Of a stretch of 64,000 bases of DNA, positions 18,884 through 24,397 are shown piece after piece (the first letter of the stretch is position 1; every line of letters begins with the position of its first letter). Position numbers and translations under genes: made by a program. The notes beneath the pieces were generated by a model that worked only from the letters and a program-made list of their open reading frames with translations, was not told the DNA's origin and ran no database searches. This stretch comes from an uncultured Paracoccaceae bacterium. Its GTDB lineage: Bacteria; Pseudomonadota; Alphaproteobacteria; Rhodobacterales; Rhodobacteraceae. The DNA is taken from contig CANNFA010000002.1 in assembly GCA_947503765.1 (NCBI GenBank), positions 492,501 through 556,500 on the forward strand, read 5' to 3'.

Positions 18884-19030
18884 CGCCTGCCGGTCCTGCG
18901 GCAACCGATGCGGTTTTCACGATGGTTTGACCGCGCTTCGGTGACCTTTTTCGCCTGCCATGAGTTGGGGTCCCAGAAGGCGGCGGGTATCTGCTGCCAG
19001 AACGGACGAGACAAGAAAGGAGAGCTTGAT

Positions 19031-19486
19031 ATGAAACGCTTTCTTATGACGACCGCCATCGTATTGACCACTGCCGGCGCCGCCGTTGCGCAGTCGAACG
19101 ACGCGCTGCGGGCCGAGGTCGGCAACTTCCTCGCCACGTCGCCGTACATGGTCGATGTGAACAGCCTGACCGACGCGCAGATCGCCGAACTTCACGGCGC
19201 CTATACCAGCAGCGAGGACGCGTCGGAGCGGCACGCGAAGGTCGAAGCGGTGATCAACGACAACAATGTCGAATATACCGACCGGCCGATGATCGTGATG
19301 GTCGAGGGTTCCGAGATGGACCGCAGCCAGCTGTATCAGTCCGTGTCGAACGCGCTGATCGGCACCAAGTATGAAGGCATGGCCTATACCCTGAGCGATG
19401 CGCAACTGGCGCAGGCATATGGCGCGGTGAACAGCAGCGACGACGCCTCGACCATGGAGACCAAGCTGAGCGCCGTCTTCGAATAA
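19031..19486 (+). CDS. Small secreted protein of unknown function
   Basis: A 151-residue product with a clean signal peptide, MKRFLMTTAIVLTTAGAAVAQ, cleaved after VAQ. The mature part has two similar segments, NSLTDAQIAELHGAYTSSED and YTLSDAQLAQAYGAVNSSDD. This looks like an internal duplication of a short helix-turn unit (LTDAQIAELHGAY / LSDAQLAQAYGAV) about 85 residues apart. The ATG follows AAAGGAGAG. It is followed by a strong terminator and is probably expressed alone. I do not recognise the family. Confidence 0.82.
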   Translation: MKRFLMTTAIVLTTAGAAVAQSNDALRAEVGNFLATSPYMVDVNSLTDAQIAELHGAYTSSEDASERHAKVEAVINDNNVEYTDRPMIVMVEGSEMDRSQLYQSVSNALIGTKYEGMAYTLSDAQLAQAYGAVNSSDDASTMETKLSAVFE

Positions 19487-19530
19487 GACGCGACGTGTGA
19501 TCCGGCTCGCCGACTGGCGATGCCGCGAAA

Positions 19531-19557
19531 GGGGCGCCCGATCGGGCGCCCCTTTTT
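19531..19557 (+). terminator. Strong rho-independent terminator of the secreted protein gene
   Basis: GGGGCGCCCG at 19531-19540 pairs with CGGGCGCCCC at 19543-19552, followed by TTTTT. Confidence 0.9.
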
Positions 19558-19593
19558 CGTGTCCTGCCCGAATGCATGCCCCTCCGGCCATGC

Positions 19594-19625
19594 AAAAGGC
19601 CGCGCCCCCCTCGGGACGCGGCCTT
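19594..19625 (-). terminator. Terminator of the Flp pilin gene
   Basis: On the minus strand AAGGCCGCG and CGCGGCCTT form a nine-base stem around a 12-base loop, with TTTTGC following. It lies 23-54 bases beyond the pilin stop. Confidence 0.8.
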
Positions 19626-19647
19626 CATGCAATTCGCTTCGGCGTCG

Positions 19648-19842
19648 TCAGTACTGCGTCTTGATACCCTGCGAGGACAGGTGCGAGCCGATCTTGACCG
19701 CGTAATCGTCGGTCGCGCCGCCCACGGTGGTCAGCACGGCAATGCCGAGGCCCACGATGGCGGCGGTCAGCACGACCCAGTCGACGGTCACGGCGCCGTC
19801 TTCGTCACGCTCGAAACGCTTGATCAGGTTGAACAGGTTCAT
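19648..19842 (-). CDS. Flp-type (type IVb) pilin-like protein
   Basis: A 64-residue pilin-like protein. The N-terminus KRFERDEDGAVTVDWVVLTA carries the class III signal: processing is expected after G16, with the hydrophobic helix from residue 21 to 42. In classical Flp pilins a glutamate stands at position +5 of the mature protein; here aspartate (AVTVD) takes that place. The gene is alone with its own terminator, far from the tadG/tadE genes near 53-56 kb, and no prepilin peptidase or secretion ATPase is in the window. Confidence 0.82.
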   Translation of the reverse strand: MNLFNLIKRFERDEDGAVTVDWVVLTAAIVGLGIAVLTTVGGATDDYAVKIGSHLSSQGIKTQY

Positions 19843-20089
19843 AATCTTTCTCCGTTAGGGTTACAGGTCCGGTTTTCCAGCGGCGACCGGGCTGTTCCCG
19901 CTGCCGATGAAGATAAACTTAACGGCGCATAAAGGCGGGAATTTGTCGGGAAAGGAGCGTTTTGCGGGAATCCACAAGGCTTTTGCGTGGAACCGGGGGC
20001 ACGCGATGCGCCGGTGCCGCGCATCGCAAGCGGCGCTTTACGGATGGGCAAGTGCCCGCTTAATGTGATGGCGACAGCGGAGAGGTAAC

Positions 20090-22078
20090 ATGCGCATTTT
20101 GAATCAAGTCATTCTGTCCAGGCAGGTCGTTCTGGCCGCGGCCTTCATCGGCTTTGCCGGCAGCGCCCAGGCGGCGCTTCAGTTCTGCAACGAAACCCGC
20201 GATGTCCAGAGCATCGCCATCGGCTACAAGGGGCCGGTCGACTGGATGTCCGAGGGGTGGTGGAACATCGACCCCGGCGACTGCGCCACCGTTATCGGCG
20301 GCGACCTGCAAAAGCAGTTCTATTATTACCGGGCCGAGGTGAATGCGGGCGACTTCGCCGGCGAGAACTACATGTTCTGCACCACGCCCGACGAATTCGA
20401 GATCGTCGGCGACACGAATTGCCAGGCCCGCGGCTATGACAGCGAATCGTTCCGCGAGATCGACACCGGCGATTCCGCCACCGATTTCACCTTCACGCTG
20501 GTCGATGGCGAATCCGCCCCGCGCAGCGAGGATGGGCCGGTCAACGACACCAGCACCGCGCCGGAGGGCGAGACCGGTCTGCGGTTCTGCAATTCCACCG
20601 AAGTCATCCACAGCGTGTCGATCGGCTACGAGAACGACAAGGGCTTCCTGTCCGAGGGGTGGTGGAACCTCGATCCCGGCGAATGCGCCGTGGCGATCGC
20701 GGGTGCGCTGCAGAAACGCTATTACTACTACCGGACCGAGGTCGATGGCGGCCCGTTCGAGGGCGAAGGCTACATGTTCTGCACCTCGCCCGAAGTGTAT
20801 TCGATCCAGGGCGACACCGATTGCGAGGCGCGCGGCTACGACACCGAGGCATTCTCGGAAATCGACACGGGGCCGACCGCGACGGGCTATACCTTCTACA
20901 TCACCGCCGATGGCAGCAACATGCCGCCCGCCGGGACCGGTGACACCACGGCCACGATCACCCCGCCGCCCGCCGCAGGCGGTGCCGGACTGGAGGTCTG
21001 CAACGACACGTCCGACATCCAGGCCGTCGCCTTCGGTTATGAAGGGGCGCAGGGCTGGACGTCCGAGGGGTGGTGGAACGTCGATCCGGGCGCCTGCACG
21101 GTGCCGGCGCTCGACGGGGTGAACCGGCGGTACTTCTACTACCGCGCCGAGGTCGATGGCGGCCCTTTCACCGGCGAGAACTACTTCTTCTGCACCACGC
21201 CGGAAGCCTTCGAGATCGTCGGCGACAGCGAATGCGAGGCGCGCGGCTATGCGCGCGAGGATTTCCGCGAGGTGGATACCGGCAGCAATACCGGCGACTA
21301 CACGCTGCGGCTGACCGATGCGGGGCTGGCCGATACCGCCCCGTCCGAGGACGATCGCGGCGAGTTTCCGACCACCACCACGACCCCGCCGCCCAGCACC
21401 GGCGCGGCGGGCCTTCGGGTCTGCAACGACACGTCCGACATCCAGGCCGTCGCCTTCGGCTACGAAGGGGCGCAGGGCTGGACGTCCGAGGGCTGGTGGA
21501 ACGTCGATCCGGGTGCCTGCACGGTGCCGGCGCTCGACGGGGTGAACCGGCGGTACTTCTACTACCGCGCCGAGGTCGATGGCGGCCCGTTCACCGGCGA
21601 GAACTACTTTTTCTGCACCACGCCGGAAGCCTTCGAGATCGTCGGCGACAGCGAATGCGCCGCCCGCGGCTATGCGCGCGAGGATTTCCGCGAGGTGGAT
21701 ACCGGCAGCAACACCGGCGACTACACGCTGCGGCTGACCGATGCGGGGCTGGCCGACACCGCCCCGGCCGTGGACACCGCGCCGGACACGCCGAAGGATA
21801 CCGGCGATCCGGGTGACCGGCCCGGCACCCTGACCGACGAAGAGCCGGCCGCCGACCCCGAGGAGCCGAGCTTCGACTTCGGTCTGCCGGGCGACGACAC
21901 GCCGGACGTGCCCGACACGGCGACCGAGACACCGAGCGATATACCGGCCGACACGCCGCCGGACATGGCCCCGGATACCGACATGACGCCGGAGGCCGAC
22001 GACACGCCCGATTTCGATCTTGTCCCCGAGGAGGACGACGATCCCAGACCGCCGCGCCGCGGCGGCTCGCGGGGTTGA
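20090..22078 (+). CDS. Secreted protein with four DUF1036 repeats
   Basis: A 662-residue exported protein with signal peptide (about residues 1-28, ending GSAQA). Four DUF1036 domains lie near residues 29-141, 163-275, 300-412 and 441-553, joined by Thr/Pro/Gly-rich linkers. Each repeat has CN(D/E/S)T, an SEGWWNxDPGxC block, a YYYRxEV block, FCTxPE and GDxxCxARGY, so four cysteines that could form two disulfides. The last 110 residues are an acidic, proline- and aspartate-rich tail ending RPPRRGGSRG. Repeats 3 and 4 are nearly identical. DUF1036 has no assigned role; most members have one or two domains. The ATG follows GGAGAGG. A second DUF1036 gene follows after three bases. Confidence 0.85.
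   Translation: MRILNQVILSRQVVLAAAFIGFAGSAQAALQFCNETRDVQSIAIGYKGPVDWMSEGWWNIDPGDCATVIGGDLQKQFYYYRAEVNAGDFAGENYMFCTTPDEFEIVGDTNCQARGYDSESFREIDTGDSATDFTFTLVDGESAPRSEDGPVNDTSTAPEGETGLRFCNSTEVIHSVSIGYENDKGFLSEGWWNLDPGECAVAIAGALQKRYYYYRTEVDGGPFEGEGYMFCTSPEVYSIQGDTDCEARGYDTEAFSEIDTGPTATGYTFYITADGSNMPPAGTGDTTATITPPPAAGGAGLEVCNDTSDIQAVAFGYEGAQGWTSEGWWNVDPGACTVPALDGVNRRYFYYRAEVDGGPFTGENYFFCTTPEAFEIVGDSECEARGYAREDFREVDTGSNTGDYTLRLTDAGLADTAPSEDDRGEFPTTTTTPPPSTGAAGLRVCNDTSDIQAVAFGYEGAQGWTSEGWWNVDPGACTVPALDGVNRRYFYYRAEVDGGPFTGENYFFCTTPEAFEIVGDSECAARGYAREDFREVDTGSNTGDYTLRLTDAGLADTAPAVDTAPDTPKDTGDPGDRPGTLTDEEPAADPEEPSFDFGLPGDDTPDVPDTATETPSDIPADTPPDMAPDTDMTPEADDTPDFDLVPEEDDDPRPPRRGGSRG
20988..21760 (+). repeat. 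In-gene tandem duplication of the third and fourth DUF1036 domains
   Basis: The segment from about 20988 to 21330 recurs with few changes at about 21411 to 21753, with a period of 423 bases that includes the linker. Both copies keep long identical stretches even at third codon positions, unlike repeats 1 and 2, so this is a recent duplication within the gene. Confidence 0.85.
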
Positions 22079-22081
22079 CCC

Positions 22082-23287
22082 GTGCGTGCGTACCCCGCCT
22101 TCCATGGCACCCTCATCGCGGGGGCGCTGTGGCTTGGCGCGGCCGGGGCTGCCCAGGCCGCGCTGGAGATCTGCAACCGCACCTCGGTGCTTCAGACCGT
22201 CGCCATCGGCTTCAAGGGTGAAAAGGACTGGACCTCGGAAGGGTGGTGGAACATCGACCCCGGCAACTGCGCCATCGTGCTCGCCGGAGATCTGACGCGG
22301 CAGTACTATTATTACTACGCGGAATCGAAGAACGAGGATTTCCAGGGGCAGGATTACAGGTTCTGCGCCTCGGACGACGTTTTCACCATCGTCGGCGACA
22401 CCTCCTGCGAAGAGCGCGGCTATGACACGCTGTCGATGCGCGAGATCGACACCGGGCCATCGGCCACCTCGTTCACCGTGACGCTGGTGGATGACGGCGG
22501 CAAGCCTTCGCCCGGCGACAAGATCGCGCCGAAGATCGAGGAAAGCCCGGACGGCACCGGCACCGGCGACACGCCGCCCCCCGCCGATGTCAGCACGTCC
22601 GGCCCCGGCGGTCCCGGCGGCGGCGCGCCGGTGACGGAGGTGGTGCAGGACACCACGGTCGTTCCCCCCGAGGATGTGCCGATGTCGATCTCGACCGAGG
22701 ATCTTCTGACCGACATCCCGGCCGGCAACCACGGCAAGGGCTTCGAGACGCTGGCCTATTTCCAGGGCTGCGAGCTGGAGAACCAAAAGGAATATTGCTC
22801 GTTCCACGCCGGCGACTGGAAGATGCGCGTGTTCTATCGCGGCCCGACACCCGAAAGTCTGATGTTCGCGCTGGAACACCTGGCGGTGAACATGCCCGTC
22901 TACCTTCGGGGCGACATGGTCGAAACGCGCGGCAATGTCGCCGCCATCGTGGTGCGCGCGGTCGAGCCGCGCCCCGGCGCCGACCCCGATTCACGCCTGC
23001 GCGCCGCCATGCAGGGCGACTGGATCGACGACGGCGACCGCCGCTGGGAGATGACGGTGCATGGCTCCGAGATCTTCTTTCGCAAGGACGGCAAGTATTC
23101 CGCCAGCCGCTTTTTCCGCATCGCGCGCGAATGCTCCGGCGCGGCGGGCGAGGGGCCGTTCATGGTGCAGATCAACGCCGAGAATAACGGCCGTACCTGT
23201 TTTCGCATCGGCCGTGTCGATGGCGCGGTGCTGGAGTTGACCGACGCCGCCGGCGGGCGGACGACGCTGTACCGGCGGCGGCCCTAG
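22082..23287 (+). CDS. Secreted protein with one DUF1036 domain and an unknown C-terminal region
   Basis: A 401-residue exported protein with signal peptide ending AAQA, one DUF1036 domain (about residues 24-140, with CNRT, SEGWWNIDPGNC, YYYYAES and GDTSCEERGY), a Pro/Gly/Thr linker (about 145-205) and a C-terminal half. The latter includes FQGCELENQKEYCSF and, over the last 95 residues, a segment beginning MQGDWIDDGDRRWEM that resembles the GxW start of lipocalin-like beta barrels; this is only a guess. The GTG at 22082 starts three bases after the preceding stop, so the two genes form an operon. No function is known. Confidence 0.78.
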   Translation: MRAYPAFHGTLIAGALWLGAAGAAQAALEICNRTSVLQTVAIGFKGEKDWTSEGWWNIDPGNCAIVLAGDLTRQYYYYYAESKNEDFQGQDYRFCASDDVFTIVGDTSCEERGYDTLSMREIDTGPSATSFTVTLVDDGGKPSPGDKIAPKIEESPDGTGTGDTPPPADVSTSGPGGPGGGAPVTEVVQDTTVVPPEDVPMSISTEDLLTDIPAGNHGKGFETLAYFQGCELENQKEYCSFHAGDWKMRVFYRGPTPESLMFALEHLAVNMPVYLRGDMVETRGNVAAIVVRAVEPRPGADPDSRLRAAMQGDWIDDGDRRWEMTVHGSEIFFRKDGKYSASRFFRIARECSGAAGEGPFMVQINAENNGRTCFRIGRVDGAVLELTDAAGGRTTLYRRRP

Positions 23288-23350
23288 GGCCGGTCGCGCG
23301 CAACCGCCCGGATTGCCAACCCGGCTTTGCGGCGGGCGCCGTGCCGTTAG

Positions 23351-24397
23351 CTAGGCGCCGCCGGTCACCTGATCGCCGCGCGGATCCAGCAGCTTGCCCA
23401 GAACCGTGTCGCGGGTGATCTGGCCCAGAAGCCGCCCATCCTCGACCACGCCGACGGGATGCCCGGTGGCGCGCACCCGCGCCATCACCGCCTGGATGTC
23501 GGCATCGGGCGGCACGCTGTCTTCCAGCTCGCCGCGCGCCGGTTCCATCACGTCGCGCGCGCATAGCACGCCCAGCGGGTTCATGTGGGCGACGAAATCC
23601 GCGACATAGGCGTTTGCGGGGCGGGTGAAAATCTCTTGCGGGGTACCGCATTGCACGATCCGCCCGCCATCCATGATCGCGATGCGGTTGCCGATCTTGA
23701 ATGCCTCGTCCAGATCGTGGCTGACGAAGACGATGGTGCGCCGCAGCCGCGCCTGAAGTTCCAGCAACTCGTCCTGAAGCCGGGTTCGGATCAGCGGATC
23801 GAGCGCCGAGAACGGCTCGTCCATCAAGAGGATCGGCGCCTCGGTCGCAAAGGCGCGGGCCAGCCCGACGCGCTGCTGCATCCCGCCCGACAACTCGCCC
23901 ACCTTGCGGTCGGCCCAGTCGGCCAGGCCCACCAGTTCAAGCTGGCTGTCCACCTGCGCGCGCCGCTCGGCCCGGCCCATGCCGCCCAGTTCCAGCCCCA
24001 GCCCCACATTCTCGCGCACGCTGCGCCAGGGCAGCAGCCCGAACGCCTGGAACACCATCGCGATATGCTTCAGCCGCAACTCGCGCAGCACCTTGGGCGG
24101 CGCGTTGGTGACGCTGACGGCGCGGCCGTCATACCAGACCCGCACCTCGCCGCGCACGACGGGGTTCAGCCCGTTCACCGCGCGCAGCAGCGTCGACTTG
24201 CCCGACCCGGACAGGCCCATCAGCACCAGGATCTCGCCGGTCCCGACCTCGAGCGAGCAATCGTGCACGCCCAGGATCTGGCCGGTCGCCTCCTGGATCT
24301 CGGCACGGCTCTGGCCCGCATCCATCAGCGGCAGCGCCTCGGCCGGTTTCTCGCCGAACACGATCGAGACGTTGTCGAATTCCACCGCGCCGTTCAT
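23351..24397 (-). CDS. choV: Choline/betaine ABC transporter ATP-binding protein
   Basis: A 348-residue ATPase of the OpuA/ProV/ChoV group that powers quaternary amine import. Walker A is GLSGSGKST, the signature is LSGGMQQR, and Walker B is ILLMDEPFSALD, followed by the H-loop FVSHDLDEA. A C-terminal CBS-like part (about residues 275-345, VMEPARGELED...) fits the group. Its start at 24397 overlaps the choW stop. Choline rather than proline betaine is inferred from the nearby betI and betA. Confidence 0.9.
   Translation of the reverse strand: MNGAVEFDNVSIVFGEKPAEALPLMDAGQSRAEIQEATGQILGVHDCSLEVGTGEILVLMGLSGSGKSTLLRAVNGLNPVVRGEVRVWYDGRAVSVTNAPPKVLRELRLKHIAMVFQAFGLLPWRSVRENVGLGLELGGMGRAERRAQVDSQLELVGLADWADRKVGELSGGMQQRVGLARAFATEAPILLMDEPFSALDPLIRTRLQDELLELQARLRRTIVFVSHDLDEAFKIGNRIAIMDGGRIVQCGTPQEIFTRPANAYVADFVAHMNPLGVLCARDVMEPARGELEDSVPPDADIQAVMARVRATGHPVGVVEDGRLLGQITRDTVLGKLLDPRGDQVTGGA

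What the first reader, a model, noticed from the sequence alone, without database searches (positions are those of the whole stretch)
20090..23287. Operon of two secreted DUF1036 proteins, one with four repeats
Four DUF1036 domains with conserved cysteines, Thr/Pro linkers and an acidic tail, followed at once by a one-domain partner with an unknown C-terminal half, look like a surface or periplasmic multi-domain binding system. No role is known for this domain, and multi-domain chains should reveal what it binds.
Basis: partly seen in the sequence, partly recalled or inferred. Interest (0 to 1): 0.62.

Follow-up and report, generated by a model that had tools for sequence, protein, structure and literature searches.

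The report
Tandem DUF1036 envelope-binding protein pair
A marine bacterium carries two neighbouring genes for apparently exported proteins built from a module of unknown role; some relatives join that module to a cell-wall-binding part, which makes the pair a testable guide to what the module does.

Summary
Observation confirmed. Protein A (20090-22078, 662 aa) has four DUF1036 domains and an acidic tail; protein B (22082-23287, 401 aa) has one DUF1036 domain and a C-half with no Pfam or NCBIfam match. The genome holds no further DUF1036 domain.

What I add:
- B's C-half is confidently predicted as an OB fold followed by a lipocalin-like barrel. Stand-alone copies of the barrel and one lectin-linked copy exist.
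- Among fetched loci, all 11 proteins with three or four DUF1036 domains and no barrel of their own have B directly downstream. Their last domains form one clade; the window's fourth domain is a recent copy of its third.
- All 11 end in RRGGSRG or a close variant. Three Rhodospirillaceae proteins with repeats and barrel in one chain lack it.
- In other alphaproteobacteria two DUF1036 domains flank a peptidoglycan-binding domain.

Best reading: exported envelope-binding proteins, A being a multivalent paralogue that works with B, possibly through its tail. Export, partnership and ligand are inferred. The DUF1036 model is all-beta without a clear solved relative. A new variant of a known, uncharacterised family, not a new kind of system.

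The parts
20090..22078 (+). Protein A: apparent signal peptide, four DUF1036 domains, acidic Pro-rich tail
   Evidence: ORF and translation; PF06282 with 4 stretches; signal peptide read by eye
20174..20509 (+). DUF1036 domain 1 of A (aa 29-140), first-position type
   Evidence: profile hit 204.7 bits; tree; AlphaFold2 model of this domain pLDDT 93.3
20576..20911 (+). DUF1036 domain 2 of A (aa 163-274), middle type
   Evidence: profile hit 196.2 bits; tree
20987..21322 (+). DUF1036 domain 3 of A (aa 300-411), last-position type
   Evidence: profile hit 203.8 bits; clade of last domains SH-aLRT 99
21410..21745 (+). DUF1036 domain 4 of A (aa 441-552), recent copy of domain 3
   Evidence: profile hit 203.1 bits; 337 of 354 nt identical to domain 3, dS 0.163, dN 0.017
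21746..22048 (+). Acidic Pro-rich linker of A (aa 553-653), with PSFDFG
   Evidence: 33 D/E, 3 K/R, 20 P in 101 residues
22049..22075 (+). C-terminal end of A (last 9 residues, PPRRGGSRG)
   Evidence: RRGG[ST]RG(G) in 9 of 11 A proteins, variants in the other 2
22082..23287 (+). Protein B: apparent signal peptide, one DUF1036 domain, OB fold, lipocalin-like barrel
   Evidence: ORF and translation; PF06282; AlphaFold2 model; VIA-align
22160..22495 (+). DUF1036 domain of B (aa 27-138)
   Evidence: profile hit 198.9 bits
22727..22981 (+). OB-fold part of B (aa 216-300)
   Evidence: 4j8q Z 8.8 (rmsd 2.7, 75 aligned), 4gla_C Z 8.8 (rmsd 2.8, 82 aligned)
22985..23284 (+). Lipocalin-like barrel of B (aa 302-401)
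   Evidence: 4qrl Z 11.2 (rmsd 1.9, 82 aligned), 8ehc_A Z 10.9 (rmsd 2.2, 83 aligned); conserved family profile A5

Best explanation
A and B are exported cell-envelope proteins made together. Each DUF1036 domain is a disulfide-stabilised all-beta binding module that works at or near peptidoglycan or another envelope glycan. B couples one such module to an OB fold and a lipocalin-like barrel. A is a multivalent paralogue without B's C-half: three or four modules raise avidity, and a long acidic tail holds out a conserved RRGGSRG end that I propose docks on B's C-half or on a shared envelope partner. Shown by computation: domain content, conserved pairing, positional conservation of domains, tail motif, one-chain versions in Rhodospirillaceae, predicted folds, and peptidoglycan-binding domains in other DUF1036 proteins. 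Inferred: export (signal peptides read by eye), disulfides, co-transcription, glycan binding, and A-B contact through the tail.
For: B directly downstream in 11 of 11 fetched proteins with 3-4 DUF1036 domains and no barrel; 5 of 5 genomes of the genus have the domains of both genes. Last domains of all 11 form one clade, SH-aLRT 99. Tail end kept in 11 of 11 (9 strict, 2 variants), absent in 3 of 3 one-chain proteins and 4 of 4 multi-domain proteins without B (tails). One-chain versions L083, L088, L102. DUF1036-PG_binding_1-DUF1036: 5 of 5 scanned hit PG_binding_1, 3 over the cut-off. Short DUF1036 genes beside an M23 peptidase (L175) and a caspase-domain gene (L048). Lectin-like stretch in the slot of DUF1036 in L205 (Ricin_B_lectin 24.1 bits, below its cut-off 29). 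Four invariant Cys in 107 of 107 domains.
Against: A and B themselves have no PG_binding_1 (none of the genome's 10 matches lies in A or B). The peptidoglycan links come from other DUF1036 subfamilies; of the nine short-gene loci fetched five have a pyruvate-kinase-like neighbour and two an M23-cluster neighbour, and 11 of 77 counted loci have a GAPDH-type gene directly upstream, so neighbours vary. L094 is mixed: the tail sits on a short partner without B's C-half. HTCC2150 keeps two-domain proteins with no B. The 11 pairs are related by descent, so they are not independent. The DUF1036 fold gives no clear ligand (best VIA Z 6.7). No promoter was found by the sigma-70 scan.
Confidence: 0.45

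Rival explanations
1. A and B are secreted inhibitors of proteases or wall hydrolases. B's OB and lipocalin-like folds resemble the potempin inhibitors of Tannerella, and A is a multi-headed version.
For: VIA matches: potempin E (8ehc_A) Z 10.9 to the barrel, potempin A (8b2n_D) Z 7.5 to the OB part. Repeated disulfide-rich heads are common in inhibitors (general knowledge).
Against: Other lipocalin-like and OB proteins match as well or better (4qrl Z 11.2, 4j8q Z 8.8); no sequence match to PDB chains. A lacks both folds.
Confidence: 0.13
2. A is a surface adhesin for a host or particle; B is its anchor.
For: Tandem beta domains on a long acidic stalk. A also has a Pfam MBG match just over its cut-off (25.6 against 23.3 bits), on 27 residues inside domain 4. 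One pair genome, Candidatus Rhodobacter lobularis, is a putative sponge symbiont (start of abstract of PMC4559732).
Against: Habitat of the other pair genomes was not established (one search gave nothing usable); no membrane anchor, sortase motif or outer-membrane domain was found in A or B. Relatives with PG_binding_1 point to the periplasm.
Confidence: 0.17
3. The pair serves osmoprotection, as it lies beside glycine betaine and choline genes.
For: Window neighbours: glycine betaine ABC transporter, BetI-type regulator, GMC oxidoreductase; bet-type genes somewhere in 30 of 77 counted loci.
Against: In the window the transporter genes run convergently. Other DUF1036 loci lie by GAPDH-type (11 of 77), pyruvate-kinase-like or ribosomal protein genes. 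Reads as inherited synteny.
Confidence: 0.06
4. Domain number has no functional meaning: A is a drifting tandem duplicate.
For: Domain 4 is a recent copy present only in this genome among 5 of the genus. Copy number is 3 or 4 among the 11.
Against: Domains 3 and 4: dN 0.017 against dS 0.163, although gene conversion is not excluded. Last-domain type kept across genomes. The tail end is kept while the linker is not.
Confidence: 0.12

Closest known systems
DUF1036 (Pfam PF06282)
   Same: All five domains exceed the family cut-off
   Different: Most fetched relatives have one domain with B-like architecture (62 DUF1036-OB-barrel ORFs); four in one chain, the tail end and the split pair are a subfamily trait. 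Family function unknown.
DUF1036-PG_binding_1-DUF1036 proteins of other Alphaproteobacteria
   Same: Two DUF1036 domains in one chain
   Different: A and B have no PG_binding_1
Lipocalin-like secreted proteins (4qrl, 8ehc potempin E)
   Same: Fold of B's last 100 residues: Z 11.2 and 10.9
   Different: About 11% identity in the alignment; no profile match in PDB (best E 0.075) or consistent Pfam family
OB-fold proteins (4j8q NigD-like, 4gla OBody, 8b2n potempin A)
   Same: Fold of B's middle part: Z 8.8, 8.8, 7.5
   Different: No profile match in PDB; an OB fold does not fix a function
Transthyretin/HIUase, pVHL and PepT2 extracellular beta sandwiches
   Same: General beta-sandwich arrangement of the DUF1036 model
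   Different: Z 5.6-6.7 only, all under 8

Membership tests
DUF1036 (PF06282) | Profile score over the curated cut-off | tested here: met
   Five domains, 99-116 bits each against 23
DUF1036 (PF06282) | Four conserved cysteines per domain | tested here: met
   Invariant in 107 of 107 aligned domains, including the window's five; that this defines the family is my observation
PG_binding_1 proteins | PG_binding_1 domain in the protein | tested here: not met
   No match in A or B
PG_binding_1 proteins | Binding to peptidoglycan | not testable with these tools
   Needs protein and sacculi
Lipocalin-like fold (B C-terminus) | Eight-stranded barrel | tested here: met
   Eight strands in residues 312-399 of the model; Z 11.2 to 4qrl
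Lipocalin-like fold (B C-terminus) | G-x-W near the first strand (motif recalled) | tested here: met
   Q-G-x-W invariant in 37 rows
OB fold (B middle part) | Five strands with a helix between strands 3 and 4 | tested here: met
   Strands 219-251, helix 258-264, strands 272-296; Z 8.8
Potempin inhibitors | Sequence relationship to a potempin | tested here: inconclusive
   Fold match only; no PDB sequence match for B or its parts
Potempin inhibitors | Protease inhibition | not testable with these tools
   Needs an assay
Transthyretin/HIUase-like | Structural match well above background | tested here: inconclusive
   Z 5.6-6.1; no Foldseek match at E 0.001

The most novel reading that the evidence does not exclude
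A and B form a two-part extracytoplasmic scaffold. The RRGGSRG end of A is a docking tag read by B's OB/lipocalin-like half, so that a multivalent DUF1036 chain is held on the envelope by a dedicated receptor. In Rhodospirillaceae repeats and barrel are one chain and the tag is absent. DUF1036 would then be a glycan-binding fold of alphaproteobacterial envelopes not described before.
Probability: 0.17. Interest if true: 0.62.

Novelty: new variant of a known kind. Interest (0 to 1): 0.42.

Why it matters
DUF1036 was found in 61 of 398 genomes of a phylum-wide draw, and a member's counterpart is listed as essential in Liberibacter crescens (one passage of PMC10687234), yet my searches found no functional study. 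The tandem chain, its conserved tail end, two domains of B without a Pfam family and the relatives with a peptidoglycan-binding domain give concrete handles for finding ligand and partner.

Tried and rejected
Sequence search of PDB: nothing convincing for B (best E 0.087), the DUF1036 profile (0.071), the barrel (0.075), the OB part (none) or L205 (none). Foldseek of the B model: no match at E 0.001, the list is led by OB-fold proteins. Foldseek of the DUF1036 model against PDB and viral models: none at E 0.001. Families that VIA does not list are not excluded.

PHROGs: A has phrog_3681 at E 7e-4 (unknown function, no stretch passing on its own) and two weaker matches exist. PADLOC: none. Pfam: A also matches MBG (25.6 bits, cut-off 23.3, on 27 residues inside domain 4), cNMP_binding and PnbB (below cut-off); I take these as matches to parts of DUF1036 repeats. 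Plasmids: 25 records with a relative, none covering 80% of B.

RRGGSRG as a general sorting tag: of 11 genome matches to a degenerate DNA pattern only A's is a C-terminus. The pattern covers CGN arginine codons only. Betaine genes as the function: judged synteny. Sponge link: only one pair genome could be tied to a sponge. A search for potempin/lipocalin/OB papers gave nothing used.

Selections and dropped rows: A2 is 59 B-type rows picked by hand. A4 is 107 of 108 domains left after an 80% redundancy filter of 132 plus-strand domains (the short L066 4365-4847 left out; minus-strand L107 and L109 copies not used). The domain tree used 25 hand-picked sources. L100 dropped out of the neighbour count. 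I fetched 11 of the 15 genomes whose two-domain hits are listed, and scanned 5 of those 11 with Pfam. The locus set was found with patterns inside the SEGWW and GDxxC regions, so conservation there is partly selected.
Full report
Check of the observation. Both ORFs are present at the stated coordinates. A has four DUF1036 domains and B one, each far above the Pfam cut-off. The genome has no further copy. A's stop (22076-22078) and B's GTG (22082) are three bases apart. Both proteins start with what reads by eye as a Sec signal peptide ending AQA; in the 14-row B-type alignment an A-x-A right before the domain is invariant. No signal-peptide predictor was available. A simple sigma-70 scan found no promoter in 19500-23600.

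Domain anatomy. A DUF1036 domain is about 112 residues with four cysteines invariant in 107 of 107 rows. Those loci were found with two patterns from the SEGWW and GDxxC regions, so conservation there is partly selected; the four cysteines are also seen by eye in the two-domain proteins, found by profile. An AlphaFold2 model of A's first domain is confident (mean pLDDT 93.3, pTM 0.86) and all-beta with nine strands. Foldseek finds no PDB match at E 0.001. VIA's best rows are the PepT2 extracellular domain (5a9h, Z 6.7, rmsd 2.9, 81 aligned), a Vps13 adaptor-binding domain (Z 6.5), pVHL (up to 6.1) and transthyretin/HIUase (5.6-6.1), all in the range the tool calls common. So: a beta sandwich without a clear solved relative.

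B's unknown half. The B model (59 sequences, mean pLDDT 81.8, residues 139-193 under 50) has every ten-residue block from 201 to 400 at 92-98. Residues 216-300 match OB folds (4gla_C and 4j8q, Z 8.8) and residues 302-401 lipocalin-like barrels (4qrl Z 11.2; 8ehc_A Z 10.9). The half has no Pfam match; for the barrel, seven families match only 1-2 of 37 members each, best E 0.0074. The barrel profile A5 (invariant Q-G-x-W and two Cys) is found in 26 of 198 family genomes and in 4 of 385 class genomes, three of them of the same family and one outside it and weak (E 1.9e-6). Of nine such loci that I fetched, six carry it without DUF1036 in the same ORF: L202 and L203 alone, L204 with the OB part, L206 and L207 with an OB-like N-part (by eye), and L205 behind a Ricin_B_lectin-like stretch (24.1 bits, cut-off 29) and before DUF4087 (38.3 bits, cut-off 25).

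Distribution. PF06282 occurs in 51 of 295 family genomes and in 61 of 398 of a phylum draw, all 61 in the window's class; one of 14 control genomes, Synechococcus elongatus, also has it. A genome-contig scan gave 304 relatives, of which 77 loci were kept. In those plus the window, 19 proteins have two or more DUF1036 domains. Eleven have three or four, no barrel, and B directly downstream: window, L055-L062, L071, L092. Three (L083, L088, L102; Rhodospira and Roseospira) have the barrel in the same chain. L094 has two domains followed by a short DUF1036 gene without B's C-half. Four (L089, L104, L113, L119) have no B nearby. All 5 genomes of the window's genus carry both kinds, 3+1 domains in four and 4+1 in the window.

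Evolution of the repeats. In a tree of 74 domains from 25 chosen sources (quick method, few columns, 32 of 71 inner branches open), the last domains of all 11 pair proteins together with the window's domain 3 form one clade of 12 (SH-aLRT 99). First domains and B domains fall apart from it, with weak support. The window's domains 3 and 4 are sisters (99), share 337 of 354 nt, dS 0.163 and dN 0.017: the fourth domain is a recent copy of the last-position type. Purifying selection or gene conversion could explain the low dN. Window against L055: dN 0.146-0.171 and dS 0.486-0.660 for DUF1036 domains 1, 2, 3 and that of B, and 0.225/0.618 for B's C-half.

The tail. A's linker after the last domain is 56-130 residues, acidic, Pro-rich and poorly alignable. 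The end is kept: RRGG[ST]RG(G) in 9 of 11, RRGSTRGS (L055) and RAGGSRLR (L061) in the other two; an FDFG/FDFD motif lies in the linker of 8 of 11. The three one-chain proteins and the four multi-domain proteins without B lack this end (tails). L094 is mixed: the end is on the short partner, PRRGTSRG; a one-domain protein of G154 (L052) has a loose likeness, ARIGGSR, before further residues. In the window's genome only one of 11 pattern matches is a C-terminus, A's own. These counts are tied by descent; they suggest, and do not prove, that the tail goes with a separate B.

Links to the cell wall. In the phylum draw 15 genomes have two close DUF1036 hits in one frame; 11 were fetched (L160-L167, L170-L172), and all 11 show an IDGxxG.xT motif stretch between the two domains by eye. 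Five were scanned: all five hit PG_binding_1, at 26.0, 23.7, 23.3, 22.8 and 19.2 bits against a cut-off of 23. Several of these genes lie in a conserved order with genes I recognise by eye as argB, a HAD hydrolase and dapD. A short DUF1036 gene lies next to an M23 peptidase gene in L175, with a relative of that neighbour in L168. In L048 a short DUF1036 gene precedes a caspase-domain gene (its PG_binding_1 match, 18.0 bits, is below the cut-off) and lies near ExbB and ExbD genes; relatives of these neighbours lie in L049 and, for ExbB/ExbD, in L050. Against: five of the nine short-gene loci have a pyruvate-kinase-like neighbour (by eye), and A and B have no PG_binding_1 of their own.

Neighbourhood. 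In 77 counted sources (76 of 77 loci and the window; L100 dropped), an EamA-type gene is directly upstream on the same strand in 27, with a LysE-type gene before it in 23; a GAPDH-type gene directly upstream in 11; bet-type genes somewhere in 30; ABC genes of the window's betaine clusters in 13 (gene names by BLAST cluster and eye, EamA and LysE checked by Pfam on one member each). The window has no EamA/LysE pair just upstream of A; downstream lie a glycine betaine ABC transporter (convergent), a BetI-type regulator and a GMC oxidoreductase. I read this as synteny, not function.

Mechanism and odds. Shown by computation: composition, pairing, domain types, tail end, one-chain versions, predicted folds, relatives with PG_binding_1. 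Inferred: export, disulfides, co-transcription, envelope or glycan binding, A-B contact. Envelope-binding pair 0.45, adhesin 0.17, inhibitor 0.13, copy number without meaning 0.12, osmoprotection 0.06.

Literature. 'DUF1036' gives one paper, PMC10687234; I saw one passage, which lists a DUF1036 protein among yeast-two-hybrid hubs reported essential in L. crescens. 'PF06282' gives four unrelated papers (listing). A wider search listed five papers, none with DUF1036. PMC4837290 was searched for terms and its main text has no '1036'. PMC4559732: start of abstract only. The library holds open-licence PMC papers only, so absence there is not proof.

Verdict. Real, conserved and apparently under constraint, but a variant of a known uncharacterised family with no ligand in hand. 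Interest 0.42.

Noticed in passing
window 19648-19842 (-): A 64-aa ORF, divergent to A, that resembles a Flp-type pilin (resemblance recalled; no Pfam match at E 0.01). ORFs antisense to it cluster in L055, L056, L071 and L092, which suggests that it is conserved in the genus.
   Followed up: partly
window 20060-22879 (-): A 939-aa open frame runs antisense to A and most of B; I take it as a shadow of GC-rich coding sequence.
   Followed up: no
L104 5872-6852 and L113 5917-6774: A two-domain DUF1036 gene sits inside the ribosomal protein gene cluster in Shimia sp. 4-924 and HTCC2150, an odd place for an apparently exported protein (gene names by eye).
   Followed up: no
L119 5887-7554: A two-domain DUF1036 protein of HTCC2150 has a different C-terminal half of about 250 residues without a Pfam match.
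   Followed up: partly
L205 4858-6099 (-): A protein joins a Ricin_B_lectin-like stretch (below cut-off), the barrel of B and DUF4087.
   Followed up: partly
L122 6608-7153 (+): A separate barrel-only ORF overlaps the end of a DUF1036-barrel gene.
   Followed up: no
window 19013-19486 (+): A small protein with an apparent signal peptide; its only Pfam match is below the cut-off (FAD-SLDH, 15.3 bits).
   Followed up: no
L048 2193-9128: A caspase-domain gene next to a short DUF1036 gene and ExbB/ExbD genes; relatives of the neighbours lie in L049 and partly L050.
   Followed up: partly
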